Shown here: positions 6,901 to 39,200 of the stretch, piece after piece
Numbering within the stretch: position 1 is the first letter of the stretch
How the letters are laid out: the number at the start of each line of letters is the position of its first letter
The notes under the pieces: model-generated
Told to the model about the DNA's origin: nothing
The model's database searches: none
What the model saw: only the letters and a program-made list of their open reading frames with translations
Assembly (NCBI GenBank): GCA_963576735.1
Contig: OY755197.1
Span: forward strand, 8,444,501 to 8,508,500
Reading direction: 5' to 3'
From: Bedellia somnulentella
Taxonomy: Eukaryota > Arthropoda > Insecta > Lepidoptera > Bedelliidae
Length of the DNA stretch: 64,000 nucleotides
Position numbers and translations under genes: made by a program

Positions 6901-9900
6901 ATTCATGTCAAAAAACATTAAATTAGTATTATATAATGTAATGGACATTTCGTAACAATTTCGCTGGCAAATAGCCATTGAAACTAAAATATCAAATAGG
7001 ATGCTTTTTATCGCGGAAAATTTTTACCATTGAAATATTCGCGCCTGATTATATTTACTATTACCGAAAAAAACGCCTAAAGTTTTGTCATAAGCAAATT
7101 TGACAGTACGAAGTTTGTCGGGTCAGCTAGTGTAATATACTTTTTCTACCCCCAGATACAAAATGCTGGACCGTCTAGAGCAAGATCGCAAGCTGATGCT
7201 GTTTCAACATCTCGGCTTCGTTCACTGTCCTATGAGAGAGCATTGTCCGGCAGGGCCTTCTTGTATGGATCTGGCCACGCCGCTTATATTGAACACGAGA
7301 GTTGGGTAAGAATAACATTATATTACAGTGAAAAAAAATCTAAAACTTCAAAACGAAACAATACCAAATATTACATAAAAATGTAGCTAAAGCTTCATAA
7401 TTGGGCATTCTGAAGCCACCTTAGGAAGTGGTTACTTAAAAACCCCAATAGCCTTAGTCACCTCTGACATTACCCGACATACCCGCATATGTATGTATAA
7501 TCTAATAAGTTAAAAGATTATTAGAAATAATATTATATCTTGTTTATTTCAGTTCCCTAACAAGTAGCAGTGAATCTCAATGCCATGGAGGTCCCCCGGC
7601 CGCGCCTTGGGCTCTCACTGCCGACGCCACTAATATAAACGTCTTTATATTGGGGGTAAGGACATATCTATATATACACAAATCAAGCGTTCAAGCCGCA
7701 TATCTCTGAAGGTTTTGGCAGAGGTACTAATACTTCTGAACATCCCGTGACAGTGTCACCTGGTGTTCGGAGAACCCACGTTTTCTTGGACAGTGTGCTC
7801 ACGTAAAAAGGAGCAGGCCTATCGAATATACTGTCTCACGAATTAATACAACTCCGCCATGTGGGTTTCCTCACGATGTTTTCCCTCACTGTTAACAACC
7901 ATGATAAATTAACCACACATATGACTTAGAAAAGACATATTGTGTTAGGCCCGGCCCAGGATTTGAACTCACGCCTGTCTGTATTGACGGGCGGGTGTTC
8001 TGCCCATTGGACTATTAAGTTATTATAAAAGTATTGTGCTTTAAGCTATTTAAAAGTTATGTCTTGAATCAACTAAAAACTTAATCTCAATGCCATGGGG
8101 AACCGCCGGCTGCTCCCTGGGCCCTCACTGCCAATGCCACTAATATTAACGTCTTTATATTGGGGGTTAGGATTATTGGTTTTACTAGAACAAATATTTG
8201 AAATAAATTAAAGTTTGATATTAATAAGTTAAGATAAAATCTTAGGCATCATTTTAGAAGGTTTATTGTAACTTTCCCATTCAAAAACATCCTACACAGA
8301 GCTGGCGATACCAGATAGCAAATAACGGCGCCACATAATTTAGCAAATAATAATGTCTCAGACTTAATATCGCAAAAAAATAAAATAAAAGATATAATAA
8401 AATGGGCCCAATATAGAACCAGTTTTTTATTGAGTTCGAGGTAATTTGCTATTTTTGTACCCGTATTTAAAAAAAAAATTCATTCGTCACTTTCAGATCC
8501 ATAATTTTTTTATTTGTCCAAAAATTAAACCCCCAATCCCTTTATTTCACTATGTTTCCCCTTATGGCCTAAAGTGCCCGAAAAAATTTATGATTCCGAT
8601 TCATTTTTTGTAATTTTAACTTACGAGTACAACTAATATAATAATTAGGCTAGATGCTCGTCTATGAGCAATAAATAACCCAATATAATTTCCCCATATA
8701 GATGGAAGGCGTAGCTAACGAATTCAGCAAACGCCTCCTCGCAGGCTGCGACGGAGACCAACGAGTGAACGCGGGAGGCTCTCTATGGACATTGGCCAGT
8801 AGGCTGCCCGGGGAACATTCGCCGGTGGAATTTGCCGCTAATGGTGATTATTATAATATTTTATTCCCATACTAGCTGACCCGACAGACTTCGTACTGTA
8901 AATTTGCTTATGATAAAATTTAGGCGTTTATTCCGGTACGCTTACACTAAAAAAATCGGGTCAATAGTTCTTGAGATAATCGCGTTCTAGAAAACAAACT
9001 CTATTACCTTATAAGAACACTTGCCACTTGCGAAATTGGTAATCGGCTAATGGTAATTATATATACATATATTGAAGCTATAAATCCCAAGAAGGGGTAT
9101 TCAGAGATACAGACTAAGAAATTCCTCAGCTACTTTTAGAAGTTTTGAGGGTAAAAGGTGGTAAAGTAAAGGCTGCAACGGAGATCAAAGAGTTAGCGCG
9201 AGCGGAACATTCGCCGGTGGAGTTTGCCGCTAATGGTAGTTATCATCATCATCATCATCATCATTACAGTTAGTATATGCCTTCAACAAGTCGTCAGCCC
9301 AAGGTGTCTCAGATTGATATTGTGACATTTGGTAGGAGACCGCTACTCATACTTCTAAAAGTCCTACTTTGTACCAAATACGCTGGTCTCATATTATTGT
9401 GTTTTTTTACATACATACATACATACATATACTCACGGCTATAAATCCCTAAAAGGGGTAGCCAGAGCTGAGAAATAACAAATTCCTCAGCCACTTTTGG
9501 AAGTTGAGTGGGGAAAAGATGGTAGTACAAAGGTTGTTGGTGATGGGGCTCCAACCGCATCGCCCAAAAATCCCTTAAAAAGCCCCAAGTCCGTTAGTCG
9601 CCTCTTACGTACACCCACCGGAAGAAATGGGGTAGTGCTATTCTAAGCCGACACTACACAGCTTGTGTTTTTTTAGATTTTGTATGTGGGGCTTCTATGT
9701 TGTTTTTTTTCTATTTTTCTTAACACTAGCCTTATTATTTTGAGTCTGAGATTCTTTTCAATATTTTCATAATGTTATCAAATATTTCCAAAATAAGTTA
9801 CAAAGTTATATTAACTTCTTAGGCTAATAGAATGTTATCAAATAATATTTTGGAAGAGATGGAAATTGAATAAATTGAAGGTAACAAGTGAATAAGTGTA

Positions 9901-12900
9901 AAATCAAGTGCAAAAAGTTAACGATCGATAAAGCGGCCAAAAGAAACTACAAATTTACGAGTAGGTCCTATTGTCTTTAATTGAAAGATTTATATTCCTG
10001 ATGTATATAATATTTGCAGGATATTTCTGCGTGTTCCAAGATCAAGAGTCATTCGAGTACATACGTAACTGCGCTGAAAAAACTTTGCTGTCTAGCTTAG
10101 AGCAAGAAGATAAATTGCCTTTCCAAGTAAGTATTATACTATTTTCAATTAAATTAATTAGTAATGATAAATTTAATTTCAATTTATTACAATGGTATCT
10201 TCTTTATAAATAATATATTCTCACGCCGTTAGTTTACATTAGGGTAGGCAGAGACTATCGATCGCCACTTTGTCCGATCCCGGCATCCCTCTCTAGCTTA
10301 ATTCGCATTTTTTATAAATAAATTGAATAATTTATATATTGCTTATCACATCTTACATACAAACAACTTATGTTATGTTTAGATTGTCTGTTTTGGTATG
10401 AATATAACATTACGACAAGTTTCATATTGATCAAAACACGTCTTAATGTTAAGATCTTTTTTATATAACATAACATAACATAAACGTTCACGCCGTTTAT
10501 CCCCGAAGGGGTTGGCAGAGGTACCAATACTCCTGAACTCACATGGCAAGCGCCATCTAGTTTCCAGAGAAGGTACCCACGTTTTGCTTAGACAGTGTAC
10601 TCACGTGATAGGGGGCAGGCCTATCGCCGTTTTGTACGAATACACTGTCACATGACTAAGTACAACTCAGCCATGTGGGTTTCCTCACGATGTTTTCCCT
10701 CACCGTTAGCAACCATGATAAATTAACCACACATATGACTTTAGAAAAGACAAATTGGTGTAGGCCCGTCCCAGGATTGGAACTCACGCCCTTCTGTTTT
10801 TCGGGTGGGTGTTCTACCCACTGGACTATCATGTCGCTTTTTTTTATGTATAATTTAAATGTTGGTTCTACAGAATCAGCTTTCTCAAGCAATGACTTAG
10901 TACTTTAATCTTCAGATAAAACATTGGTATATAATGTTTGCATTATTCTCAGGGTCTTCCTTTGGTTGTGATATTTATACAAGACGATAACATGGACAAG
11001 AAGGAACTCATGAGATTGCAAGAAGAGGGACAGAATCTTGCTGACAAGTAAGTATTATTGCATGCTTGTATTGTTTATACATACATACATACATACATAT
11101 ACTCACGGCTATAAATACCTAGAAGGGGTAGCCAGAGCTAAGGAATCAGAAATTCCTCAGCCACTTTTGGAAGTTGTGTGGGGAAAAGATGGTGAAATAA
11201 AGGTTGTTGTTGATGGGTCTCCAACCGTATCGCCCAAAAATCCCTTAAAATCCCCAAAACCGTTAGTCGCCTCTTACGTACACCCACCGGAAGAAATGGG
11301 GTAGTTCCATTCTAAGCCGACACTTCACAGCTAATCTTTCAAATATATCATGACAATGTGTTTTTCATTTAATTCCAAACAATTCAATCTCATACATGAA
11401 CATTATTAATATTCCCAAACCTATTACGAAGTCATTATTGTAAATGAAGTCTGCAATGTATAAACAAAAACTTTTATTTTATTATGAATAAAAATACTTA
11501 GAGATTATTTCTAGACACACTATCATTAATTAATTTATCATGGTTGTTAACGTTGAGGGAAAACATCGTGAGGAAACCTACATGGCTGAGTTGTACTTAG
11601 TCATGTGACAGTGTATTCGTACAAAACGGCGATAGGCCTGCCCCCTATCACGTGAGTACACTGTCCATGCAAAACGTGGGTACTCTGAACACCAGGTGAC
11701 AAAGTCACGTGATTTTCAGAAGTATTAGTACCTCTGCCAACTCGGGGATATGCGGCGTGAACGTTTATGTTATGTTTATGTTTACTATCATTAATCCAAT
11801 TCACACAATATAAACTCACTTTAATATGCATGTCAGTATTTTTAACCTTAACTTTTTTTTTCAATTTGCCTATAATTAACATATTTTTTATTCCTCAGTC
11901 TCCACGGATCCTACATGGAATGTTCAGTAAATGAACTGGGAACTGAAGCTTTGACTTCTGACGCAGTTCAAGAGATGATCAGAGCCAATCGAGACAAAGC
12001 GAGTTATGCGCATCTTTATAGGGACCTCATTGTGTGTTTTGATTCTGATATCAGGTCTGTATTAGTATAATATATTTGAAAGACTTTAGTTTTAAGTGCA
12101 CTCATAAGATCTGAGAAACACAGGTAGGAAGAAATCTTTTTCAATGATTTAGGACAACTTGCAAAATTTTGGACCGAATTGGGTAGATTGAGAAAAACGG
12201 ATAGGGCCTATGTACAACAGCTTTAATTAAAAACTACGTGCGGAAACTTATAAACAATCTAGTCGTATCTAAGGCTAGTATAATAGATAGTCTAATATAA
12301 TAGTATGATTTTACTAAGATATAATTACACAGCTCCTGTAAATATATATTAGTTGCTAAGTAATGTCTGATGCAGTTCAAGAGATGATCAGAGCTAATCG
12401 CGACAAAGCGAGTTATGCGCATCTTTATAGGGACCTCATTGTGTGTTTTGATTCTGATATCAGGTCTGTTTTAGCATAAGATAATTGAAACATACGTCCT
12501 TATTATATACGCATGGCTATAAATCACAAAAAGGGGTAGCCAGCTTCACTATAAAAGCTTCTATAATATTATTTGGGTGATGGAGATAGCGTTCCTGAGG
12601 TTGTGTAAAATTATTCTATGCAGTTGAAGTCATAGCAAAAGCTAGTATATTTATAGATAAGTACACTGCTCTTGTAAATATAAGTAAGCCGTTAAGTAAC
12701 TTCCGATGCAGTTCAAGAGATGATCAGAGCCAATCGGGACAAAGCGAGTTATGCGCATCTTTATAGGGACCTCATCGTGTGTTTTGATTCTGATATCAGG
12801 TCAGTTTTAGTATAATATATTTGAAAGACTGTTGTTCTTGAGTTATAGGTTATCTTAATATACACACGAACGCAATAAATTCACAGATACATACCTTCTC

Positions 12901-15900
12901 ACTGCTGTGAATCCCAAAAACGCGTTCGAGCTTCATAATTAGAAATATTGCAGCCCATTTTGGAAGTTGAGAGATTTTCGCATAGGGAAAAGATGTATAA
13001 AATGAAGAATCAATATGATAAATTTATATCAATAAAAAGTATTTGTTAATTGCTATGTCAAATCGATTGAGGCTTAGTCTACGGTTGTTTGAATAGGTGT
13101 AAAGCAGATAAATGGCATGCCAAATTTTTGCCAATGAAGCAAATAATTATTTAAAATAGACAATTTGAATTATTTCTTAAATATTTTTATTCAAATTATT
13201 TATTGATCAGTCTTAATATTGACTCCTTAGAATCATGGTGTGTATGTTCTGTGACGATCCTTACTCCCCCGAGCGAGTGCTGAGTCCGTTGTTAACGCAT
13301 CGCGCCTGCTTCCTCACTGGAGACCGCTCTATTGTCATTGAAACTTTCCTGGGAGACTCTAAGAGGAGTCTCATTAATTTATATATGAATACAATATGTG
13401 TCTTTTACTCATGTTGTTAAAATTGATTTTAGTCGATTAAAAAAAAATGGTGGAATCAAACAAAAAACAAATGGAGACATTTACTACAGACTTCTAACCA
13501 CAACCTTAAGTTACTTTGAAAAGTAGCATAACAACTCGTTTAGTTACATTAATTCGTTCAATCGTTCACTCAATTATAATTATTACAAAATTTGCTTAAG
13601 ATTGTTTTAAAAAGTAGCATAGCTATACAAACTATATCACTAAGTTACTCACTCTCCCCACAGAATCATGGTGTGTATGTTCTGTGACGATCCTTACTCC
13701 CCCGAGCGAGTGCTGAGTCCGTTGTTAACGCATCGCGCCTGCTTCCTCACTGGAGACCGCTCTATTGTCATTGAAACCTTCCTTGGAGACTCTAAGAGAA
13801 AAGTTGAGGTAAGTTGTTACCACGTATTATTATTATTCGGAATACTTTTAGTTCCTCGCCTCTCCCATGGCCGAAACAGAAAATTAAATTTTAAATGGGA
13901 GAGGCGGTACTCCCCGACAAGAGCACAGTCGGTCGGGGTCAGGGAGTCAGGTTCAAGAACCGACGGACGATCCGAGCCGTATCGAGCAGCACCGCTTTCT
14001 GCATTTGTGCTGGAACCGACACGCCACAGAAATCCAACCGCCTCAAGTTGGTCGCGAGGCTGGTTGGAATTAACCCGTTCGCGGACAAAACAATTGGGAT
14101 TATTTCTGTCGAAGTCACACCCCACATGTCGGTGATCTCGTGAGCCAGATCGAGATATTTCCGACGCTTCTCGGTGTCGGCTTTCACGAGACCCTCGTCA
14201 TGAGGGATAGTGACATCCACTAGAAATACCCTCGACTGCGACCGATCCCATACCACGATATCAGGCTTATTCGCTAGAATAGTCCTGTCCGTGATAACGG
14301 ATCGGTCCCAATAGATTTTGGCACGGTCGTTTTCTAGGATTGGCTCCGGCAGATACTTGTAATACGGCAGCCTCTGTTGCAAGAGTCCGTATTTCAGAGC
14401 GAGCTCCTGATGCAGGATTTTGGCTGCTTGGTTGTGTCTGTGCAAGTACTCAGTGTTAGCAAGAGCCGAACAACCGGAAATAACATGCCTAAGTGACTCT
14501 CCGGGACGGCCACATGCTCGACAAACGTCTGTGGTACCGTCCTTTAGGATGTATTTCCGATAGTTCCGCGTCTTGATAACCTGGTCTTGTATTGCACAGA
14601 CAAAACCTTCGGTTTCCCCAAAGAGGTCCCCGAAACGCAGCCAATGCAGGGAGGCTTTACGGTCCACGAAAGGTTCGTGAAGTACCTTGTAAAACCTCCC
14701 GTGCAGCTCCTTCTCTTTCCATACGGACTCCCGATCAGAGGTGCTAAGTACCTCCGGGGTTCGCCAATCCTGTGAGGCCAACGATAAGGGAGTCAGTCCT
14801 TTATCACTAGCGACCACCTCTCCCCGAATACTATCATCCGTCATCGGCAAAAAATAGTTTCTGAGGTTGCATACCTCGCGGTTGTGCATGGTTTTGGCAC
14901 TCAAGAGGCCTCGACCACCACACTTCCGCGGGATATACAATCTCATAACTGACGACCTCGGATGATGCATTCGATGAGAGGTCATCATCTTGCGGACTCG
15001 TCTGTCCAGAGCGTCGAGTTCGGTCTGAGTCCATCTAAGCACGCCAAATGTGTACATCAGTACAGGCATGACCCAGGAGTTAATGGCTCGGATCTTATTA
15101 ACGCCCGACAAGTAGCTATTAAGCACACTTTTCAGGCGTCCATAAAACTCCTCGCAAACACCCTGTTTCATGCCTGCCACCTTCACACCGATGGTTTGTG
15201 ACATGCCCAGATACCGGTATGTTTCAGCCTCGGAGAGTGCCCTCAAATGATTGGTGCCGACATCGACACCATCAGAGTGCACGGCATGCCCCTTCTCAAC
15301 ATGAATGACCGCACACTTATCGACCCCGAGCTCCATCTTGACGGAACCACTGAAATCGTTAGTGATCGTCAGTAGCTCCGCCAATCTGTCAGCCGTGGGG
15401 GCGTAAAGCTTCAGGTCATCCATGTAAAGGAGATGAGGCAAGCGTGGTCCGCCTCTCCGAAACTGAAAGCCTGTCCCCGAATTCTCCAAGAGTGTACTTA
15501 GAGGACTCAGGGCCAAGCAAAACCAAACTGGACTCAGGCAATCGCCCTGGAAAATCCCTCGCCTTATATCAATTTGGTCATCCGCGTCCTTCATCCGCTG
15601 ACCGTCTAAACTCAGGATCGTTCTCCAGCACCCCAATTGCCCGAGGAAGTGTCGAACTGCACTATCAATTTTGTACAGCTCGAGGACCCTCATGAGCCAT
15701 GAATGAGGTACCGAATCGAACGCCTTCCTGTAGTCTATCCAGCCAGCGGAGAAGTTCCGACGGTTGCGTTTGACCAGTTGGCCTACGACCGCATCAATGA
15801 GGAGCAGCTCCTTGCTACCGCGACTACCACCCCTACATCCGTTCTGAGCTCCAGAGATCACATTGTTATCAACAATGTGTTGAGTAATCTTGGAGCTCAG

Positions 15901-18900
15901 AACGGATGTCAAGGTCTTGTAAATTGTACAAAGACAAGTAATGTGATGGATCCGCGGTAGCATCGCTCTTTGGAGCTAAATGAGTGACCCCAGTAGTTAA
16001 GAAGTTCGGGAGCGTCCCACTCTTGAGGGCACTTTGGAACTGACGGGCGAGAGTAGCGTGACAGCGCGTGAACCCCTTCAACCAGTAATGGTGCAGTCCG
16101 TCCGGCCCCGGACTTTTCCAGTTCGGAGCCTTACGGATCGCAGCCACCACATCCTCCTCGGATATGTTGACGGGGTTCATGGGCGCTATGGGCTCGCACG
16201 CTCCCTCGACCGCCTCGAACCATCGGCCCTCTTCGTGATCAACAGGCAGCGACCAAAGCCCACGCCAAAAGGCAACTACATCAGCTTTTTCCGGTCGCTG
16301 ACCTGTCGAAACCACATCGGGACGCTCCAAAGTTCTGTAGAACTTCTTCTGGTCACTCATGAAGAGACGATTCTGTTGGTACCTCTTTACCCTTTCAGAA
16401 TATCGCCTAATTCGCTTACCCCAAGCAGCGATCTTCTGCTTCAGATCATCGATGCGCTCCATCAGTTTACAGGCAAACTCCGGTGAGTTGTCAAAGACAT
16501 TCTCACCAGGGAATGCCTCCCTGACGAAGCGCACCACCCTCGGCCTATTGTTGCCTGACCTGAAGCTGGTCAGTTTGCCGATGAGGACCCTGGCCCTTGT
16601 GATACGGCTTTCAATCCGCCTCATCCAGGCTGGCCTAGTTCTAGTCCTGGGACTAGTACTGCCAGCCTGGCGGGAGCCACCAGCTCTTATTGGCGGCATC
16701 CTGACGCCGACAAATTGACAAACTGTCATTGCGGCGCCAAAGAGAATTGAATCCGTATCCCAAAGGTCCATGCTGCTCTCTAAAAATGAGGGCAGCATGT
16801 TATTGACGGCCTCAACGACATCCCGAACTTTGACGCTGAGAGGAACTCGGGGCAGCCTTGGCCTCCTTTCGAGAGGCACTTGGCGATATTCCAGGATCGT
16901 CTCTTCGAGTGCGCTCCTCACCAAATCCAAATCCAGGGAGACTGTTCCCCAATCGCTTTCCGCACCACCCACATCCGGCAGGTTAGCAATTGGCTCCCTC
17001 CGTACTTCCCGTTCAGGGACTGGAGGGAGAACCTGCAAAGGTGGCTCTTCGTCTAGCGGGGGAACAGCCTCGCGTCGCAATTGTTCGAGTTCGGTAGTGC
17101 TAAAAAGTTCTGAGCGCTGTATGTACCGAACTCGATCCGCCAGGTTTTGTTCTGTGACGGTCAAATTGGGCTCCAGCCGCAGAAATTCGCGGTACATTGC
17201 TGCCCGATAACCCGTCCGTCCAGTTCTTGAACCCGAGGCCCTAATATAGGCCCGCATGGCATTCCTATTCATTTCGACCGTCCATGCCATGCGGCGCCTT
17301 GTTCCACCAGCGGCGGGCACCGATTGCTGGGACTGAGTTGCCCCAGTCCCAACCGTTGCCAAGCCATCTGGTGGCTGAGGTGGTCGCGCAGACCGACCAG
17401 GTGGTCGGGCCGGTCTGCTGCGGCTGGGGGACCGCATGCTGCCACGTCCAGCCCCAGCTCCAGACGCGCCCCAGCGATAACCCCTGGGGAGCGGCCCTAT
17501 ACGCTCATCATTATTTCTTAAGTCCATTATTTAAGTCCCGGGTTTTCGCTCACTTGCCCCGGGGAGACCGTTATTGCTCTGTTTTGCGCTGAGACCAGTT
17601 TGTAGACACGGTCAACACCTACAAACTCAAGCGCTGACTATTTGCATTGCTGGAATGGCAAGCTGGTAAACATGTCATCCTGCCATTCCAACAATGGGCG
17701 GTGGGGTCGTCACATCCCTACGCCATTTATTATTATTATTATTATAGCCTCATTCACTTCCCACTGCTGGGCAAAGGCCTCACAATTTTGAGCCCACACA
17801 TCTCTGTTTGAGGCTGTACACCACCACCCTGGATCAAACCTGTCCAGGTCGTCCCTCCATCTCCTCCTAGGCCTTCCCCTACGCCGCACAGTGTTTCGTC
17901 TAGTACTAATTAGCGGGACAATATTATCGAAATTTTCATTATATCTTTTTTTCGTTATTTCCTGTATAATTTAGTATTTTAAGTGTATTGTACTCAAGAA
18001 TATGAAAAATTAAACACAATTTTAATCTTACCAATATATTTATTGAGTAAGTCATTAACAATCACCATCATTTGACGATCCATAGTCATCACTATCTAAT
18101 TCGGTAGAGTCTGACTCAAAATAATCCTCTGCATCTGTCCTATTATGTTGATTAATTGATTGCCGTTGGATTAGTTTTGGAGGAACTATTAGGAATTCTA
18201 AGACTTGTGGTGGCAATGAAGTTGAATTTTTGCGAGGTACTTCCCTAAATGAGTTAATTAGAGGATCAGATGTAATTAAAAGCATTCTCAAAAGATCTGT
18301 ATTTGTGGCAACCCGTGACCGTTTCCGTGTATGGCGTTCGCGAAATCTGCGACAATCTTTATTTCTTGACTCCTGGGCTTCTTCCGAAAGCTGCCCAATT
18401 AGCAGAAGGCAAGAATCGGAAAATGATTTAGACTTACATAAACTGTAGAATGATGGAAACAAATTATGACTAGTCTTTATTGACCATTTTCTCGTCTGTT
18501 TACAGGAATGGCTAGTCAATTTAGAATCCACATAATAGGCCAATGCTTCATCTGGTGTTAATTGCCGACTTTGCTCACTACACTTATTATAGCTATCCTT
18601 TTTAACTATATCTACACTTACTACACTTTTAATTTTATTAGCAATAAGTCTATGGCCTTCTTTTCGAGAAGACAACTCAGCAGCAGTTGCTAGCTCTGCT
18701 GCAGACCGAGTTTCCAACAAATCAGCGACTCTTCTTCTTTTTGTTTTTAAAGACGAATCCTCAAAACTCTTCTTAGGGCGTCCAACATTCGCATCTGATG
18801 ATGTGGATGGCAGCAACTCCTTATTGACAAGCACTTTAACCACCATATCGGGCCCATTTAAAAAATCTTGGTGCTTGTTGATGAAAACATCTTTGGTCAT

Positions 18901-21900
18901 TTTAGATTTGTACCAATTTTCTTGCAATCTCGTTCAAATACTCCAAATTTTCATCTTTAATTCCCTGTCTGATTCCATGGTTAAATGGGTCAAGCTATGT
19001 TTATTACAAATAAACTCAAAAATCCCTTTGATCCGGTCACTTTTGGTGTGTTTATACCATTCTTCGAAAATCTCCATTTTCGTTACAGTGAGGACTTGCT
19101 CTGAAAAACAATAAAAAAAATACTTCCAGTCCATTTCGGGGTCTAATTATTTTTAAAATATATACTGCAGTGTTTTAGATACACGATGAAAAAAGATTCA
19201 GCGTGAATACAAGTGAATACATTAAAGTTATGTTCCTGAAAAGTTCTTGTTTCAAAAATTTTAGCATTAATTTAATGCTATTCATTGGAACCCTTACAAT
19301 ATATTTTTTACAACAGTAAAATACTAATATATGATTATAAATAATTGTACATACCTTCAGTAAAATATTCCATTATAAATATCACTTTGAACTTTGATAA
19401 TAATTTCAAGAGAGGTTAGTATAAGTATAGAAAAAATGCCAATGATTTAACAATTGCAATTACACTTGATTTTATACTTACTTTCGACTATGTTCACAAG
19501 CTGAAATGAGGGTATACCTAAATTATTTTTTGGAATAACCGACCCACAGGTTTCTGACGTCACATTTTTGAAGGTATTTCTTAGAAATCATAACATGAAT
19601 ATTGTCTCGCCAATTAGTACTAGACAAGACACCGTGCGCCGGTGCCCATCTGTTGGCACCCATTCAGTGGCTGTTTTAGCCCATTTTTCCGGATGCATTA
19701 ATTTGTATTATTTAATTCATTCCTCACAGTTCATATATATATCCCCACCAAGGGGCTCGAACCTACCCTATAAAGGGCGATTTGGCCATAGTCCACCACG
19801 CTGGCCAATTGCGGGTTGGCAAGCTTACGATTACTACCGTAATAGTAGCCGGGACCGACGGCTTTACGTGCCCTCTGAAGCACGGAATCATCTTCATTTT
19901 CGGAAAATCAGGTGATTCAAGCCTGCAATATTCTTCCAGACTGGGTAAAATCTTACAAATTAAATTTGTAAGGTTACCCCCACGGAGATCGAACCCGAAA
20001 CCTCCGTACTTCAAAACCAAGGGCTTAACCGCGAGACCATGGCGGCAATCATTCATACATAACTTTACAATTTAAAAAACTCGCTTTCTGTATTCAACGC
20101 CGTTGTTGTTGTTATGACAGGCACCGCCACGAGTGTTAAGAATCGGAACTAAAAACTGCCAAAGTGGCGGCTAATCTCTCGCTCTCTCGTGTTGAATAAC
20201 ATATGGCGCCGAATACAAACTGCAATTATATGTAGCCGCATTTAATCCGGCTAATGCTGTAACCGCCGCATTACAAAACGGCCCTATTTTATATAACAGC
20301 TAGCCGTAATGTGATACGGCGGATTATACAATCCGACTGCGACATCTATTCTATACAATATATATTGGTCTCATATAAGATAGACCGTATCCGTTAAGGT
20401 TGCGGAAGCCAATGGACGAGGGCAGCATAAAACTTGGATCTGTCTTGGCAATTTTTGGGGAAGGCCTTTGTCGAGCAGTGGACGTCTATTGGCTGATGAT
20501 GATGACACTGTCTATGAAATTAGTAAAATTTTAGTGTCTGTAATATTAAAAAAAAATTTTTTTAGTACATGTGTATGTTTCGAAAGGAAGATTATAAGAC
20601 TGGAAAAAGCCAAATTTATGCAAAATCCATTAAAAACCTGTATACAGTTTTGAATGCATATTATGTTAAAAGAAAGATGAAAGAACCTTTACAATTATTT
20701 ACTTTCAGTTTGCAATCAAACCATGTAATTTATGTAAGTTGAAATAATTTTAATGCAATATAGTGAACCCAGAAATGTTAAAGTTATGTTTGTTTTTCTC
20801 CAGGTGATAATATCTAGTTTCCACGGGGCCAGTCAGTTCAGAGAAGAGTTGATTCATGGTTTCATCCTCATATATTCTGCGAAGAGGAAAGCAAGTTTGG
20901 CTACATTGAAGTAAGTATTACTTTTAGTATGTAAAGATATGCCGTGTAGTGTCGGCTTAGAAATGCCGTGTAGTGTCGGCTTGGAAATAGCACTACCCCA
21001 ATTCTTCCGGCGGGTGTACGTAAGAGGCTTTAAAGAGATTTTTGGGCGATGCGGTTGGAGACCCATCACCAACAACCTTTATTTTACCATCTTTTTCTCA
21101 CAAACTTTTCCAAAAGTGGCTGAGGAATTTCTAATTCCTTAGCTCTGGCTACTCCTGCTAGGTATTTATATGAGTTTATTGTCACCTGATATTCGTAGTT
21201 TATATGCGGAATGCGGATCTCATTAGTAGTTTTTTTTAGTTTATCATGGACAAGCTTCTTGCCCGCGACTACGTCCGCGTGGACAACATTTTGTTACATC
21301 CGGTTTACATCCAAAATACCAAAAAACTATCTTAACTTCTGTTTTTTTATAAGTTGTAATAGACATAAAAAACATTGAGGCTTTTTTAGTGATTATTGGG
21401 CGATGCAGTTGGAGACCCGTTTGACTACCTTTTCCCCATTCAATTTCCAAAAATGGATAAAAAATGACTATCTCTGAAGCTGTGGCTACCCTTTTTTGGG
21501 ATTTATAGCCTTTAGTATATAATATACCTACTCATGAATGGTCGATAGATGAATTTCATATATTCCTTTTTGTAGTGGCTATAACAGTCAATCGCATCAA
21601 ATTTCAAATTTCTAGATACAGAGATGTCAAAAATCTCTTTATTAATATACATGTACTTGATATTTCATAAGAATCATGAATCAACCTATTTTGTACCGAG
21701 TTTCTAAGTCACATCCAATGTCTTATTCCTTGGCTCTGGCTACCCTTTATAAAGGGATTTATAGCCGTGAGTTTATGAATGTATGTATGTTTCTAATTTC
21801 AAAAATGAGAATATCTTTACTAAGTATATATAGCAGTATCGCGCTGCGGTGGCGACCCGATGGTGATTGTGTGAGAGTTTGTAGCCGATCAGTCATAGAT

Positions 21901-24220
21901 GGCAGGTCTAAAACAAATTGTAATTTTATAATATTTACAAACTAATTGACCCGACAGCCCTCGAACTGTCACAAAAGTTTAGTCTGAACTGAAGTATTTA
22001 TAACAAAGAAAAAAAGAAATCATACCGCGATGTAGAAAGCAACTACTCGCGCCATCTAGTAATACAATACACACATTAGTAAGAATTTGGTTTGGAATGT
22101 TTCTATTCACCCCGCATCACTAAACTTAGCGTGTCTATTCACCCCGTCGCGCTATAAGGTTATGGTTTTTTGATGCTCCTGTGGGAACCCTTGCGAAATC
22201 CGGAATAAATGATATCCTATATGTTGGCCAGGTGTATAAGCTACATTCATGCCAAATTTGATCAAGATCCGTCCGGTACAATTAACGTGATGACCGGACA
22301 TACAGACAGACAGACAGACATTTTTTTCATAAAGCACAAATTTGGCTTCAGTATCGAAAATAAAACATATTCCACCGGTTTTTATTTTTTTTTCTTCAAT
22401 GTACAGTTTTGACCTCGGTACAGTCTTATTATACTATATATAGTATAGATTAAATATACCTTAAATCAAAGCTAAACAATCATGATCGCCTATTGTGCAG
22501 AGAGGCTTCGGTTCAAATCTTGAGTCAGACCTACGCCAAATTGTTTTTTATAAAGATATTATGTGTGATTAATTTATCATGATTGTTTACTGCAAGAGAA
22601 AACATCGTAAGGAAAGGCACGTGCCTAAGTTGTACTTAATCTTGTGATTTCGTTTTAAAACGGCGACAGCGCTTTCGCGTTTGGTGCACCAGCCTACTAT
22701 TGTGTACCTTACATCCTTATAAAAAACATAAACGTAACATAACATAAACGTTCACGCCGTTTATCCCCGAAGGGGTTGGCAGAGGTACCAATACTCCTGA
22801 ACTCACATGGCAAGCGCCATCTAGTTTCCAGAGAAGGTACCCACGTTTTGCTTAGACAGTGTACTCAAGTGATAGGGGGCAGGCCTATCGCCGTTTTTGT
22901 ACGAAAACACTGTCACATGACTAAGTACAACTCAGCCATGTGGGTTTCCTCACGATGTTTTCCCTCACCGTTAGCAACCATGATAAATTAACCACACATA
23001 TGACTTTAGAAAAGACAAATTGGTGTAGGCCCGTCCCAGGATTGGAACTCACGCCCTTCTGTTTTTCGGGTGGGTGTTCTACCCACTGGACTATCATGTC
23101 GCTTCTATTTTATGCTATTTTATAAAAAACCTATATATTATTCAAGCGCATTCTCGCTAAACCCGTCCAACTTTATAGCATTTTGATAGTCTGTCTTAGA
23201 TCCCTCTAAAAATCTAAAATTCCTTCTAAAACTTCTAAAATTTCTTATATTTTGTTACAGCGCCTGCTCTAAAAACGTCCCAACCTATTAATTCAGTTAG
23301 CATTTGTTAGTTAGTGGTCAAATTGACATTACATTACTAGTGTTTATAATGAATATTATTGTCTTCTTCGAATTTCGACTGAACTGGAACCTTAGTAATA
23401 ATATATTGTTTCAGCGCATTCTTGCTCAATCCACCAACCTTATAGTCTCTCTTAGAACCGTGTCAAAAAAAAAACATCAGTGTTGTTACAGCGCTTTCTC
23501 GCTAAGCGAGCCCAACCAACTTCATGTGAATTGTTGCAGCGCTTTCTCGCTGAATGCTTCTAACTAAATATCTTATCTTTTTGATCCTCTTAAACCATTT
23601 TATGTATTAATAATAAATAAAGGAAAGAAAAAATTCGACACTAGCGGGGAATGAAACCCCGACCTCTGGGTATGCACCCCCTTTCTTTCCTTTTTTTTCC
23701 CTTTATTTATTAGTAATAATCCACACATAAGGCTTTCATGAACAAAAACATTCTAATTATCATTTTATGTATTGCTCCAGCGCCTTCTCGCTTAACGTCC
23801 CCAACATACCAATCTAAGTGGTAGCGGTGAACGGCTCCCATTGTAACACTATGCCTTACTAGCATATATTTATATATCATCCCAACATACTGTTTCTCTT
23901 TAAATTGGTGTGTACTGTTACAGCGCATTTTCGCTAAAAGTGCCTAACCTTCTATAGTCTCTCCTAGATCCTTCTAGTACACTATTTTGTGTCTTCTGAA
24001 ACACCATCTTACAGCTCTTTCTAGCTTGGCACATCAACCTACCACTATAATGTACATGTATATGTATATGTGAATTGTTACAGCGTATTATCCTTAAGTT
24101 TATCAATTCACTGATATAGTATGTGTATATTGTTCCAGCGCCTTCTCGCTAAACGTCCCGAACCTACCAATTCAAGTGGTAGCAGTAAATGGCTCCCATT
24201 GTCACGGCCACGCCTTACTA

Positions 24221-24270
<50 letters not shown>

Positions 24271-27200
24271 TGTTTATGTCTGTGGTTTATTTCTCTTCAA
24301 TAATATTGTCTAAAAATGGTTGAATTTTGGTTACTGAACTGGAGCCTTAGTAATAATATATTGTTGCAGCGCATTCTTGCTCAATCCACAAACCTTCTAG
24401 TCTCTCTTCGAACCGTTTCAAAAATCATCATGTGTGTTATTACAGCGCTTTCTCGTTAAGCGAGCCCAACCTTCCAACCAACTTCATGTGAATTTTTGCA
24501 GCGCTTTCTTGCTAACCATATCCAACTTACTATCATATCTCATAGAACCATATAAAACATGTTCTAATATATTGTTCCAGTGCCCTCTCGCTTAACGTCC
24601 CCAACTTACCAAGTCAAGTGGTAGCGGAGGATGTGTTTCATTGTGACGGCCACGCCTTAATTTCTACTACTTTACAGCGCATTCTTGCTCAATCCATCAA
24701 CCGTCTAGCCTCTCTTAGAACCGTGTCAAACATTTTCATGTGTGTTGTTACAGCGCTTTCTCGCTGAATGCATCCAACCTAATATCATATCTCTTTGATC
24801 CTTTTAAACCATTTTATGTATTAATAATAAATAAAGGAAAGAAAAATTTCGACACTAGTGGGGAACGAACCCCCGACCTTTGGGTATGCGCCCCCTTTGT
24901 TTCCTTTTTTTTCCTTTATTTATTAGTAATGAGGTTTCATGAACAAAAACATTCTAATTATTATTTTATGTATTGTTCCAGCGCCTTCTCGCTAAACGTC
25001 CCCAACCTGCCAATACAAGTGGTCGCGGTGGATGGGTCCCATTGCGACGGCCACGCTTTACTAGCGGATGGAAACGCAGCAGCCGATAGATTGAGAGCGC
25101 ATTTCGCGATATATCCTGCTCATGATGCGCAATGTAAGTGTCATACATACATACATACATACATACACATACATAAAGTAGGTTATAATAATATATGCAG
25201 TTTTACAAGAACTCAAACTCGAATCGCACACTAGCGGCGTTTCATTTTCCTACATCGGAGTATATAAAAACTTCTCGAACTAAGTTTGAATACAAATTAT
25301 AAGTTGGTACACAGTATGGTGTACATACATACATACATACATATACTCACGGCTATAAATCCTTAGATGGGGTAGCCAGAGCTAAGAAATGGAAATTCCT
25401 CAGCCACCTTTGGAAACTTGAGTGGGGAAAAGATGGTAAAATAAAGGTTGTTGGTGATGGGTCTCCAACCGCATCGCCCAATAATCCCTTTAAAGCCCCA
25501 ATACCGTTAGTCGCCTCTTACGTACACCCACCGGAAATGGGGTAGTGCTATTCTAAGCCGACACTTTACAGTATGGTGTATTGGTCGGTATATCTGCTAT
25601 TTTCATATAACTAGCATGTCATTAATATAGTTTTCAGAAAATTTAAATTTAAAAACATATTTGAATGGCAATATAAAGCACAATATTAATTATCAATAAT
25701 TATTATCAAATTCCACAGCGGCATTCTACACCCCCTTCTTCAAGGAGGTATGGGAGAAGAAGGGTGAGATAGAACGGGCGTTTAGAATGGAGCAACCTAG
25801 CAATTTACCAGATGTGGCTACGGCAAGGCCAGATCCACCTCCAAGGAACCATTCTTATCATCTTAATAACAAGTATGTATTAGTCAATACTTAGTTTTAG
25901 TTTTAGGGATGAAATCGTAGAGGACTTAAGTAAATAGAGCGGAAACCAAACGAAGTTCAGTATAAAATTACTAGATAATAACATAACATAGACGTTCACG
26001 CCGTTTATCCCCGAAGGGGTTGGCAGAGGTACCAATACCTCTGAACTCACATGGCAGCGCCATCTAGTGTCCAGAGAAGGTACCCACGTTTTGCTTAGAC
26101 AGTGTACTCACGTGATCGAGGGCAGGCCTATCGCCGTTTTGTACGAATACACTGTCACATGACTAAGTATAACTCAGCCATGTGGGTTTCCTCACGATGT
26201 TTTCCCTCACCATTAACAACCATGATAAATTAACCACACATATGACTTTAGAAAAGACAAATTGGTGTAGGCCCGACCCAGGATTGGAACTCACACCCTT
26301 CGGTTTTCGGGCGGTTGTTCTACCCACTGGACTATCATGTCGCTAAATAGATAAATTCCGCTAAAAACAAATTGTCAAAATTAGTGGTCTCTACACCCTG
26401 ATTAGTGGATTCAATGTTCTGACATTGGCTGCTCATACATTTACTCCGCTAAGTCATTGCCAATAAACAGACCCAATACCCCTTACGGAAAATAACATTC
26501 TTTGTTTCTTCTATTTTTAGCTAAGTCCTCTGGGTGAAAATAGCATTTGCTACCTATCATTCAATTACGAAAAGAAACGGTTTGGGGTATTGAAAGAGTC
26601 GGGGGGGGGGGATGAATTTTCAATAATAAGTAACTTGTACTTTTGGGAAGACAATAGATTGTTTAAATAAGCTGTCAAGTCTACATATTATATAATCAAA
26701 AAAATAATTATTAAATAGCGAATGTGCAATTAAACTAATTATAAGCATATATGTATTATTTTTATTTAAAAATAACGTCATTCTTTTTTGACTGAGACTT
26801 TTATTTATCACCTTATGTTGGATAAATATTAGATTTAAGCTTTGGTTAAGTGACAAGTTTAATAAATCATTAATTGAAAAAAAAATGAATGTTTTGAAAG
26901 TATATGTAAAATATTCAAACTATTTCAGAATGGATCACAAATTAACAAACTCATTGGATCTACTGATTGGTCCCGACTCGAGAGCTGACATTGACTCCGA
27001 ATACAGCGATTCTATCAACAACTCCAAAAATAGAGGATTCTTGAAAGGTAAATTTCTACATTATTTTGATAGAGCTTAAGATCTTTACGGATCAAATTAT
27101 AATTTTGCAACATGTACTGATTTGCATGTTTTGCCTTGGATACTTAGGACAGGCCATTGAAAAATCTGTCTACAAAAGCACATATATTTTATCGACTTCC

Positions 27201-36200: not shown

Positions 36201-39200
36201 AATTTATTGAATATTATGTGATATGTAGGCCTTAACTGAAAACCAGTGTTTTACATCTTAACAGTAACAAACGCTGAGTTAGAAACTAGTTTATGTTACC
36301 ATAGCATGAATACGATACTTTAAAAATTGTTGTTACTCCTATCATATACTATTGCTGTGTAGTGTCGGCTCAGAATAGCACTACCCCATTTCTTCCGGTG
36401 GGTGTACGTAAGAGGCGACTAACGGTTTTGGGGTTTTTGAGGGACTTTTGGGCGATGCGGTTGGAGACCCATCACCAACAACCTTTATTTCACCATCTTT
36501 TCCCCACACAACTTCCAAAAGTGGCTGAGGAATTTCTGATTCCTTAGCTCTGGCTACCCCTTCTAGGGATTTATAGCCGTGAGTATATGTATGTATACTA
36601 TAAATATTATTGTATTGCGTTATTTTAACATGTACAAATGAGTTATGTATTTGACTTAGGTTGCGATAACAATATGCGAGCTTGTCTAAACAGATGTATG
36701 GATCTCAATGAAGCAAAAAAAAATATCAGGATCAAACAAAATGACTACTCAGTCTCATGATACTTAACTCTTTTGTTCATATTCATAGCGAAGAAGTCAT
36801 CATTGATATATTAATAATATTTCAGTCACACCGCTCAGGCTGGTCCCATTCGAGCAACCAACAACATCACCATCCTTCGGGGGTTAGCTCCGAAACGGAA
36901 TTAGATGTACAATATGCGCAGGTTCATATACCTATTAGATTCCGTTGTTTTTATTAATATAGATTTTCACAGTGATATGCTTTGTAGTTTTTTTGATGTT
37001 TTTTTATTGCATTCTTACATTTGGTCTTATTCAAGCAACCTAAAACATCACCATCCTTCGGGGTTTAGCTCCAAAACCGAACTATATATACGATACGCAC
37101 AGGTTCGTATACCGATTAGATTTCGTTGTTTTTTATGTAGATTTTCACAATAATATGCTTTGTTTGTTTATTTGATGATTTTTTTATTACATTTTCACAT
37201 TTGGTCTTATTCGAGCAACTAACAACATTACCATCCTTCGGGGGTTAGCTCCAAAACCGAATTATATGTACGATACGGATATATGTTCATATACTGATTA
37301 TATTCCGTTGTGTTTTGTATATTTAGATAAATATATCGATTTATTGACGGTACTGTGCTTTGTTAGTTTTGCATTTTAGTTTGATTTGATTTGGTTTTCC
37401 TATTTGCTCATTCAATTGAGTAGGAATTAGATGTAAAATATGCACACGTTCATTTATCGTTTAGATTCAATTACCAGATCCATACCATTGAGTTTTATGT
37501 AGTTTTTTGTTTGGATCGATTTCGTGGGAATTAGATTTTTCACCTTTATTTTTGCGCTACACTCTTGTTGAATAGTTTTATCGATTTTATTAAGTGAGAA
37601 ATTTGCTTTGTCTGTTGATGTTTTATTTCGCTGCATTTTTTATTACGTTTTTTTAGCATTTTTCTGAAGAATGACTTGTGCATAGTTTTAGATGTAAATT
37701 ACAAATAGATATAAGTGGCGATGCTTAGATTTTAATACGTTGCTTGTAGGTTCTTTTGAAATTTGAATTTAGAGTGGATGTTTAATTCAATTTTGTTAGT
37801 TTTTTATTCTTAGGACAAATATTCAGTAGATTGGCGTTATGCACGAGTTAATGGGACAGCATTAAATTTTAGATATGCTAAAAGTTTCCATATTTATTTA
37901 TTTTTATCGGATTGTCGAACTGAAAAAGAAAATGCTTTTCTAGTTTATATTAAATATTGCTTTGGTTTTGTATTCGATTCTTTATTGGATAACTGTTACA
38001 TTTTGTTCGTTCTATATCTTAAACTGCGTTTACGTAATAGTTGTAAAAACTTTTGGTCCAAGTCCAAGTTTCATTAGAACACCCCTATCCAATTAGCACA
38101 AATAATATAGTCTGTACTATCAAAAAATACAGTTATGGCTTGTTCCAGATATTAATTATTTTCTATATGTTTCCGTTTACCCGTCCGCTTTTCTAAAATA
38201 ACTGACTCTTTCACACTTCCAAATAGCGTAAACTTAACTGTTACTTTACCCATACGTGGTCAAAATATAATTACCAGCGTGCCACGCCCCCTCATTCTTA
38301 TTTTTAGTTGTATTTTATATATATATATAGCTTAATGAAGTTTTTTAGATTATTTTTATTGAGAGCATACTAGCAATTCGTTTTTATGTTGTTTTGACAT
38401 GTTTATGCAATATCATACTTCTTTTAAAAAGTTTTGATCGTAGTTACAAAAATTAGTGTTCATTTTATCAATGATTTTTGAAAACTACAATTTTCTATAA
38501 AACCTTACTTTTAAGCATGCTTTTGTTTGCAACATACAATCTTATATTAAATACACATTTGTAATGTTTGCTATTGTACTTTTATGTACTAGTCGAGTTT
38601 TTTAAATTTTTTGTGTGGCCAATATATTTGACAAACAGAAGTCTTTATTTTTTTCCTATCTTGATAAAAATGTTCCCTTTTATTCCTCAGATAAAAGAAA
38701 CTAACGAGTATATGGATGCTCCATCTATGATGAGGCCGCGAAGACATCGGCGACACGAGAAAACACCCGTACATCAACCTTGTGAGTTTATTTGAAGTTT
38801 ATGTATTTTTAAACCTTTGTAACTCAAGGATTTCAATTTCATTGCGAGTCTGAACATCTGAGTATTGAATAATGTACTGAATTGTAGGTTTGTCAAAACG
38901 CATGTGGTGGTTTGGCTTATCGAAGGTGGGTTCACACAAAGTAGATCTTTATCATATCTGCTATTCTAGATTCTAACCTACAACTCTAGCATAAGAGAAT
39001 CGATTGATACCTAGAATGATACGCGAAATAAAGAAACATCCAAACTTCAATAGAGATGATGGTTGGCAATTACCACCTGCTTGGAACCTGATCATGAGCC
39101 CTACTAAGCAAGGGAAGAACACTAGCAAGACTCCAGATAACATTAGCTCTTTAGTACATAGCAAATATTAAACGCAAATGTAACTCAAACTTTGTGAAGG

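What the first reader, a model, noticed from the sequence alone, without database searches (positions are those of the whole stretch)
23146..25133. Array of 16 decoy splice acceptors ahead of one exon
Seen: 17 occurrences of a pyrimidine-CAG acceptor fused to the first bases of exon 13 (CGC..TTCTCGCT), AG ending near 23146, 23260, 23414, 23491, 23539, 23780, 23923, 24014, 24083, 24138, 24369, 24445, 24501, 24580, 24677, 24753 and, functional, 24981. Only the last continues to a donor. The acceptor plus about 10 exon bases is kept in nearly all copies while the rest drifts, which is odd for neutral decay. A shared family C fragment in two units shows higher-order duplication. Inference: either repeated slippage at this border, or retained acceptors that tune or delay exon 13 splicing, or recursive splice points.
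Basis: partly seen in the sequence, partly recalled or inferred. Interest (0 to 1): 0.88.

Follow-up and report, generated by a model that had tools for sequence, protein, structure and literature searches.

The report
Sixteen orphaned copies of one splice border
Just ahead of one exon of an insect p190RhoGAP gene lie 16 broken copies of that exon's start with its splice signal; they are most likely leftovers of repeated DNA duplication rather than a splicing device, but several other exons of the same gene also have broken copies of one border in the next intron, which is unusual.

Summary
All 17 AG positions are exact; a whole-unit profile finds all 17 units and none without an AG. The last fits a true acceptor: exons 12, 13 and 14 join into one p190RhoGAP pG1/pG2 match (78.7 bits). 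The other 16 are border copies in a nested array: short units A, B, C, of which four uninterrupted ones are 76-79 nt, long units D carrying up to 84 exon bases, and block duplications including a shared insert.

The claim that acceptor plus exon core is kept survives a stricter test among like units: 4 of 60 core columns changed against 68 of 225 others (P 0.0025 without the functional copy under a cluster-aware control). Variation between unit types is third-codon-position biased, as if units were copied from a coding exon at different times. Recursive splice points are excluded (0 of 17 AG|GT). Most decoys lack a good branch point; 15 of 16 would give an early stop. I favour an inert relic of iterated border duplication. 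No RNA or related species was examined.

Unexpectedly, 5 of 8 low-copy local repeat clusters in the window overlap family-supported exons (random mean 0.7).

The parts
20804..20910 (+). exon upstream of the array ('exon 12'), encodes VIISSFHGASQFREELIHGFILIYSAKRKASLATL; donor AA|GTAAGT
   Evidence: Pfam PF19518 continuous across the junction
23132..23173 (+). unit U1 (AAG acceptor at 23146)
23246..23287 (+). unit D0 (AG 23260), degenerate, D-type by its alignment to D2
23400..23441 (+). unit A1 (AG 23414)
23477..23518 (+). unit B1 (AG 23491)
23525..23566 (+). unit C1 (AG 23539)
23602..23733 (.). insert with inverted ends (MITE-like; limits approximate) inside the C1-D1 spacer; related sequence elsewhere in the window
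23766..23864 (+). unit D1 (AG 23780): acceptor plus 84 exon bases, stop codon and frameshift
23909..23950 (+). unit E (AG 23923)
24000..24041 (+). unit F (AG 24014), degenerate core
24069..24110 (+). unit G (AG 24083), degenerate core
24124..24222 (+). unit D2 (AG 24138): acceptor plus 84 exon bases, frame open, then a TA repeat
24355..24396 (+). unit A2 (AG 24369)
24431..24472 (+). unit B2 (AG 24445)
24487..24528 (+). unit C2 (AG 24501), no insert behind it
24566..24659 (+). unit D3 (AG 24580): decayed D-type
24663..24704 (+). unit A3 (AG 24677)
24739..24780 (+). unit C3 (AG 24753); the only decoy of 16 whose use would keep the frame open (76 extra residues)
24816..24934 (.). second copy of the insert (limits approximate), in the C3-D4 spacer
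24982..25133 (+). exon that fits the gene model ('exon 13', unit D4), acceptor AG at 24981, donor AAT|GTAAGT
25719..25872 (+). next exon ('exon 14')

Best explanation
The array is a mostly inert relic of iterated tandem duplication across the intron/exon-13 acceptor of a p190RhoGAP gene. A segment of about 76-79 nt (about 27 exon bases plus about 50 intron bases ending in the acceptor) was duplicated again and again, and larger blocks were then duplicated too. Each event leaves the downstream copy joined to the rest of the exon, so the gene still works, and orphans the upstream copy. The orphans are normally ignored because they have no donor downstream, mostly no good branch point, and a complete 152-nt exon lies behind them. 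Shown: array, unit types, block duplication, one copy that fits the gene model, third-position bias between types, slower decay of CAG plus 12 exon bases. Inferred: neutrality, silence in splicing, order of events.
For: Spacers as well as cores align between units and blocks (23513-23863 with 24727-25065 at 85%; 23352-23601 with 24299-24563 at 79%). Only D4 has exon, donor and next exon in one Pfam match. In the first 21 codons D4-specific changes are 3 synonymous and 0 not, D3-specific 1 and 5, D1-specific 1 and 1 (a stop), with five ambiguous columns set aside. Within types A, B, C the exon-derived columns change equally at codon positions 1, 2, 3 (5, 5 and 5 of 27 each), as expected without coding constraint. 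Variation between types is third-position biased (P 0.003-0.015), as expected if each type was copied from a coding exon. 15 of 16 decoys lead to a stop within 3-62 residues. Only D1, D2 and D4 of 17 have a strong branch-point motif in -15..-60, and D2's has an AG behind it (recalled motif). No second gene copy was found: 7 of 7 protein matches in the genome are here.
Against: CAG plus 12 exon bases decays more slowly than the rest among like units (4 of 60 against 68 of 225 columns; P 0.0025-0.008), and all 16 orphans keep an AG although F and G are otherwise strongly diverged. Pure neutrality does not predict this. Two of 16 orphans (D0 3.4, A3 2.75) score above the live acceptor (1.85) in the recalled acceptor matrix. 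D2-specific changes in the first 21 codons are 3 synonymous, 0 not. Six units have irregular spacing to the next (114, 48, 91, 69, 55, 56 nt), so the regular unit is an idealisation. No RNA was examined.
Confidence: 0.7

Rival explanations
1. The orphans act as decoy acceptors: they bind U2AF or U2 snRNP and delay or divert splicing of intron 12. Use of one yields a truncated, probably degraded mRNA, so the array lowers or times p190RhoGAP output.
For: AG kept in 16 of 16 orphans and slower decay of the core; 15 of 16 would give a premature stop; two orphans outscore the live acceptor in a recalled matrix; decoy exons that are recognised by the spliceosome but rarely spliced in are described for human OGT (passages of PMC12017769 seen).
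Against: The tract upstream of the CAG is not conserved (13 of 39 columns changed); most units lack a branch-point motif; most acceptor scores are weak (16 orphans -0.95 to 3.4, nine other acceptors of the gene 1.45 to 4.65, matrix typed from recall, a tenth left out by a coordinate slip); no good donor, whereas blocking the decoy's 5' splice sites abolishes the human effect.
Confidence: 0.17
2. Some units are used as alternative coding ends: C3 as a longer exon 13 (76 extra residues) or D2 as an alternative last exon.
For: C3 to D4 is 228 nt, in frame and open; at least one such extension among the same 16 distances arises in 87 of 3000 random placements. D2 is open and its own changes in the first 21 codons are 3 synonymous, 0 not.
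Against: The C3 extension runs through the insert and splits the pG domain match (62.5 instead of 78.7 bits); the sister unit C1 meets a stop after 9 residues; beyond the first 21 codons D2 differs from D3 and D4 by one amino-acid change; counts are small.
Confidence: 0.07
3. Recursive splice points or mutually exclusive exons selected by RNA pairing.
For: A 4071-nt intron with many acceptors.
Against: 0 of 17 AGs are followed by GT and no orphan has a good donor; no reverse-complement site for the core with up to 4 mismatches in the window.
Confidence: 0.01
4. The core is a dispersed mobile repeat that happens to sit here, or the array is an assembly artefact.
For: Two copies of a mobile-like insert lie in the array. 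63 of the 76 core hits with at most 1 mismatch lie elsewhere, four of them within 28 kb on C22; those places were not examined.
Against: 6 of 7 exact core hits genome-wide are here, and elsewhere no comparable cluster shows in the list; alignments between units are 67-90% identical, which assembly errors do not produce; the units are homologous to the exon itself.
Confidence: 0.05

Closest known systems
Tandem exon duplication and its intronic relics (passages of PMC9013439 seen)
   Same: Copies of an exon within the same gene, formed by local duplication, many not annotated as exons.
   Different: Here only the acceptor border is copied, 16 times, and no copy has a good donor.
Minisatellite in an intron (passages of PMC12783039 on earthworm metallothionein introns seen)
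   Same: Array of clustered monomer types inside an intron.
   Different: Here the unit spans a splice border and carries coding sequence.
Decoy exons controlling intron retention, e.g. human OGT (passages of PMC12017769 seen)
   Same: Non-productive splice sites inside an intron of a working gene.
   Different: Those have both splice sites and binding data; here acceptors alone and no binding data.
Recursive splicing ratchet points (start of abstract of PMC8605326 seen in listing)
   Same: Acceptor-like sites inside an intron.
   Different: Ratchet points join an acceptor to a donor; none does here.

Membership tests
Tandem (partial) exon duplication | Homology of intronic copies to the exon itself | tested here: met
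   D1, D2 and D3 align to D4 over 79-84 exon bases (84-88% identity over the aligned stretches); others over about 27 bases
Tandem (partial) exon duplication | Spacer sequence also homologous, so the copying was of DNA | tested here: met
   C1/C3 spacer of 35 nt z 10.9 against shuffles; block alignments
Mutually exclusive or cassette exons | Each copy has acceptor and donor | tested here: not met
   No strong donor in the array by a recalled matrix
Recursive splicing ratchet point | Acceptor AG directly followed by donor GT | tested here: not met
   0 of 17
Decoy exon | Both a 3' and a 5' splice site within the intron | tested here: not met
   AGs present, good donors absent by a recalled matrix
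Decoy exon | Spliceosome binding; intron retention depends on it | not testable with these tools
   needs RNA and binding data
Intronic minisatellite | Head-to-tail units of regular length | tested here: inconclusive
   Units A1, A2, A3, C2 are 77, 76, 76 and 79 nt, but the 16 spacings run from 48 to 241 nt; Tandem Repeats Finder calls no array of this unit here
Intronic minisatellite | Copy number variable between individuals | not testable with these tools
   one assembly only

The most novel reading that the evidence does not exclude
The array is the extreme of a gene-wide class of 'exon-border echoes'. Truncated copies of an exon end, each containing one splice border, lie in the adjoining intron (acceptor side upstream, donor side downstream), and some still evolve as coding sequence, so they would be used as alternative last or first exons or be refreshed by exon-confined gene conversion. 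The exon-13 units would then be a time series of one coding splice border kept by splicing-level selection.
Probability: 0.12. Interest if true: 0.75.

Novelty: new variant of a known kind. Interest (0 to 1): 0.48.

Why it matters
An intron that carries 16 dead or dormant acceptors with the same exon start as the live one is a natural test of how the spliceosome ignores near-perfect competitors, and of whether such orphans are purged, tolerated or kept. If the unit types are successive copies of one coding border, the array also records past states of that exon in one genome. The gene-wide echoes raise the question whether exon borders are hot spots of local copying.

Tried and rejected
Mobile-element origin of the core: made unlikely by the genome pattern count. 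A second gene copy or haplotype copy as donor or comparison: none by protein search; the matching DNA search did not complete. RNA pairing with a docking site: no complementary core in the window. A 4-base-pair hairpin around the acceptor (AGCG with CGCT): 94% of cells paired and one compensatory change, but 26 of 500 shuffles do as well; I do not rely on it. Age gradient along the array: none (Spearman 0.02). My first core test counted overlapping and partly non-homologous columns and gave an inflated P (6.6e-7); it was replaced. Simple tandem duplication as the cause of the other exons' copies: not supported, as intron flanks beyond the border show no homology (seven flank tests, z from -1.6 to 1.2). 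Literature: eight answered searches (one search found 0 papers); nothing in their listings describes a like array, but three papers were looked into by passages and none read whole, and most subscription-journal papers are not held. Not used: the search for related loci and the search for homologous proteins (the genome collection of the first is bacterial and archaeal; the second leaves out full-length relatives of a piece); the genome tool states that it has no relatives of this genome.

Splice and branch-point scores use matrices and motifs typed from recall, not trained on this species. The identification of the organism as probably lepidopteran is recalled and inferred and rests on no call.

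Full report
WHAT IS THERE. The window lies at C29:8444501-8508500 of a 549 Mb genome. A p190RhoGAP (ARHGAP35-like) gene runs on the + strand. The open frame around the FF exon 2440-2626 matches PF23083 (80.8 bits). Six joined exons (10953, 11899, 13664, 20804, 24982, 25719) match PF19518 at 151.6 bits, and four later exons (51908, 52515, 54489, 56056) match RhoGAP PF00620 at 114.7 bits. Exons I list at 818, 7156, 7553, 26930 and 41194 have no family match of their own. Exon '12' is 20804-20910, exon '13' 24982-25133, exon '14' starts at 25719; joined they match PF19518 continuously (281-401, 78.7 bits). The junctions keep the frame (AA|C gives Asn, T|CG gives Ser). Intron 12 is thus 4071 nt and the array fills its last 1.8 kb.

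THE ARRAY. A profile built from the 17 units finds each of them (worst E 1.9e-6), finds no unit that lost its AG, and adds one marginal copy at 22666-22725 (E 0.0011). Since the profile was built from the units themselves this is not an independent discovery test; it shows that no acceptor-less unit was detectable between them. In the whole genome the core CAGCGCNTTCTCGCT has 76 hits with at most one mismatch (21 for the reversed pattern): 13 in this array, including 6 of the 7 exact ones; the other 63 are spread over many contigs, with four within 28 kb on C22 that I did not examine.

UNIT TYPES. From self-alignments: short types A (23414, 24369, 24677), B (23491, 24445), C (23539, 24501, 24753), and long type D (23260, 23780, 24138, 24580, live 24981), which carries up to 84 exon bases; U1, E, F, G are single. 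The order D-A-B-C-D recurs, so blocks were duplicated. An insert with inverted ends lies in the spacer after C1 and after C3 but not after C2, so it probably entered before the C-insert-D block was copied (85% over 352 nt). Four units (A1, A2, A3, C2) are 76-79 nt long; all 16 spacings are 114, 154, 77, 48, 241, 143, 91, 69, 55, 231, 76, 56, 79, 97, 76, 228, so many units are shortened, lengthened or interrupted. Tandem Repeats Finder reports only two small repeats inside the array.

IS THE CORE REALLY KEPT? Similarity across all 17 copies cannot answer this, because units are recognised by their core. I therefore compared like units (A with A, B with B, and so on; the single units U1, D0, E, F, G were left out) over non-overlapping homologous columns. 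Core columns (-2 to +12) changed in 4 of 60 against 68 of 225 elsewhere (P 8.7e-5); without type D, 2 of 45 against 43 of 150 (P 4.4e-4). By type the contrast is 0 of 15 against 16 of 55 (A), 1 of 15 against 3 of 33 (B, no contrast), 1 of 15 against 24 of 62 (C), 2 of 15 against 25 of 75 (D, P 0.22). Against randomly placed contiguous 15-column windows, which respects clustering, P is 0.008 for A-C and 0.0025 for A-C plus the three D orphans; the minimum of the scan falls at -2. The core is richer in G+C, and G+C columns elsewhere are not slower (15 of 53 against 28 of 97 for A+T, types A-C). The upstream tract -14 to -3 is not kept (13 of 39). So the remark holds, modestly, for CAG plus the exon bases, not for a whole acceptor. 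The region was named after looking at the same sequence, so these P values flatter it.

CODON PATTERN. Between units the first nine exon codons vary mostly at third positions (mean entropy 0.65, 0.77, 1.25 for positions 1, 2, 3 over 17 units; permutation P 0.0095; one unit per type P 0.003), giving variants of AFSLNVPNL. Within types A-C the changes are even (5, 5, 5 of 27 columns each). I read this as units copied at different times from an exon under coding constraint, then released. Against that: D2-specific changes in the first 21 codons are 3 synonymous to 0, which could mean that D2 is or was coding.

COULD THE ORPHANS SPLICE? None is followed by GT, so none is a ratchet point. Used as an acceptor and read to the exon-13 donor, 15 of 16 give a stop after 3-62 residues; C3 alone is in frame and open, adding 76 residues. 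At least one such open extension among the same 16 distances occurs in 87 of 3000 random placements. That insert splits the domain match. With matrices typed from recall, orphans score -0.95 to 3.4 against 1.85 for D4 and 1.45 to 4.65 for nine other acceptors; D0 and A3 score above D4 (the exon at 26930 was left out by a coordinate slip). A CTAAT branch motif with a clean interval is found at D1 and D4, none as good elsewhere between -15 and -60; D3 has one a little too close (with the sequence).

GENE-WIDE ECHOES. Other exons also have truncated copies in the adjoining intron: FF exon 3' part at 2827-2920 (91.6%), exon 7553-7655 3' part at 8083-8172 (86.7%), exon 11899-12054 3' part plus donor at 12366-12490 and 12699-12836 (94%), exon 13664-13808 5' part at 13229-13365 (98.5%), an exon near 41194 at 40842-40947 (84.9%), exon 56056-56248 5' part at 55494-55573 (86.5%). 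At the settings (60 nt, 80%, offset under 1500) 17 of 22 local hits were low copy (5 dropped as multi-copy) and form 8 clusters, the array counted as one. Of the 8, 5 overlap one of the 11 family-supported exons (random placement: mean 0.70, 5 or more in 2 of 20,000 trials). 6 overlap one of 15 exons that I had listed or printed as candidates before seeing the repeats (mean 0.94, 0 of 20,000). 7 overlap if the exon near 41194 is added, which I recognised only through its repeat; that last count is circular. The eighth is the 180-bp repeat at 36841. A more sensitive scan added two weak local pairs not overlapping exons (691/1230 and 5014/6223). In all 7 cases acceptor-side copies lie upstream and donor-side copies downstream; for 7553 and 41194 the choice of which copy is the exon is mine. 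A further case lies in the upstream neighbour (L009 1819-1881 and 2406-2467), again without a family match. Among 18 control stretches of 10 kb, 6 had low-copy local repeats; I looked at three of these in detail and one (L014) looked to me like an exon-border copy. For the six exons other than 13 the intron beyond the border shows no homology to that of the copy (z -1.6 to 1.2), even at 98.5% exon identity, so plain tandem duplication does not explain them. Synonymous to other changes: the two copies of exon 11899 differ from it and from each other by 3, 4 and 4 synonymous and no other changes in the matched 32-33 codons, where 0.23 of random changes would be synonymous; the 13229 copy 2 to 0; the 8083 copy 7 to 4; the 55494 copy 1 to 2 plus a 9-nt gap; the FF copy 0 to 5 with a stop; the 40842 copy 5 to 5 with a stop in the frame that I favour. 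Detection bias (an exon pair decays on one side only) can explain part of the enrichment. I have no settled explanation: exon-confined gene conversion of old copies, or use as alternative first or last exons, are candidates.

CONCLUSION. For the array itself, border duplication with orphaned copies is well supported; inertness is the likeliest reading, not a demonstrated one. Related species, individuals and RNA were not examined.

Noticed in passing
2827-2920, 8083-8172, 12366-12490, 12699-12836, 13229-13365, 40842-40947, 55494-55573: Truncated copies of six other exons of the same gene (two of these exons inferred), each with one splice border, acceptor side upstream and donor side downstream, intron flanks unrelated.
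   Followed up: partly
12366-12490 and 12699-12836: The two copies of the 3' part of exon 11899-12054 differ from it and from each other only at synonymous sites in the matched codons; the first begins with an in-frame ATG just before the homologous part (sequence).
   Followed up: partly
L009 1819-1881 and 2406-2467: What looks like an exon 3' end with donor (..DDACFQPFKG) and a diverged copy of it 587 nt downstream, in the stretch just upstream of the window; no family match.
   Followed up: partly
24753-25133: The only orphan whose use keeps the frame: 228 nt, open, through the insert.
   Followed up: partly
22666-22725: Possible 18th unit, separated from the array by a repeat element (E 0.0011).
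   Followed up: no
13939-17530 (minus strand): Two long overlapping open frames (678 and 553 residues); the first has a YMDD motif and looks like a non-LTR retrotransposon by recall.
   Followed up: no
36841-37316: 180-bp tandem repeat, 2.6 copies, the one cluster of eight that overlaps none of the exons I listed.
   Followed up: no
13340-13375: The copy at 13229-13365 ends in a short inverted repeat (GAGACTC..GAGTCTC) at its junction with unrelated DNA (sequence).
   Followed up: no
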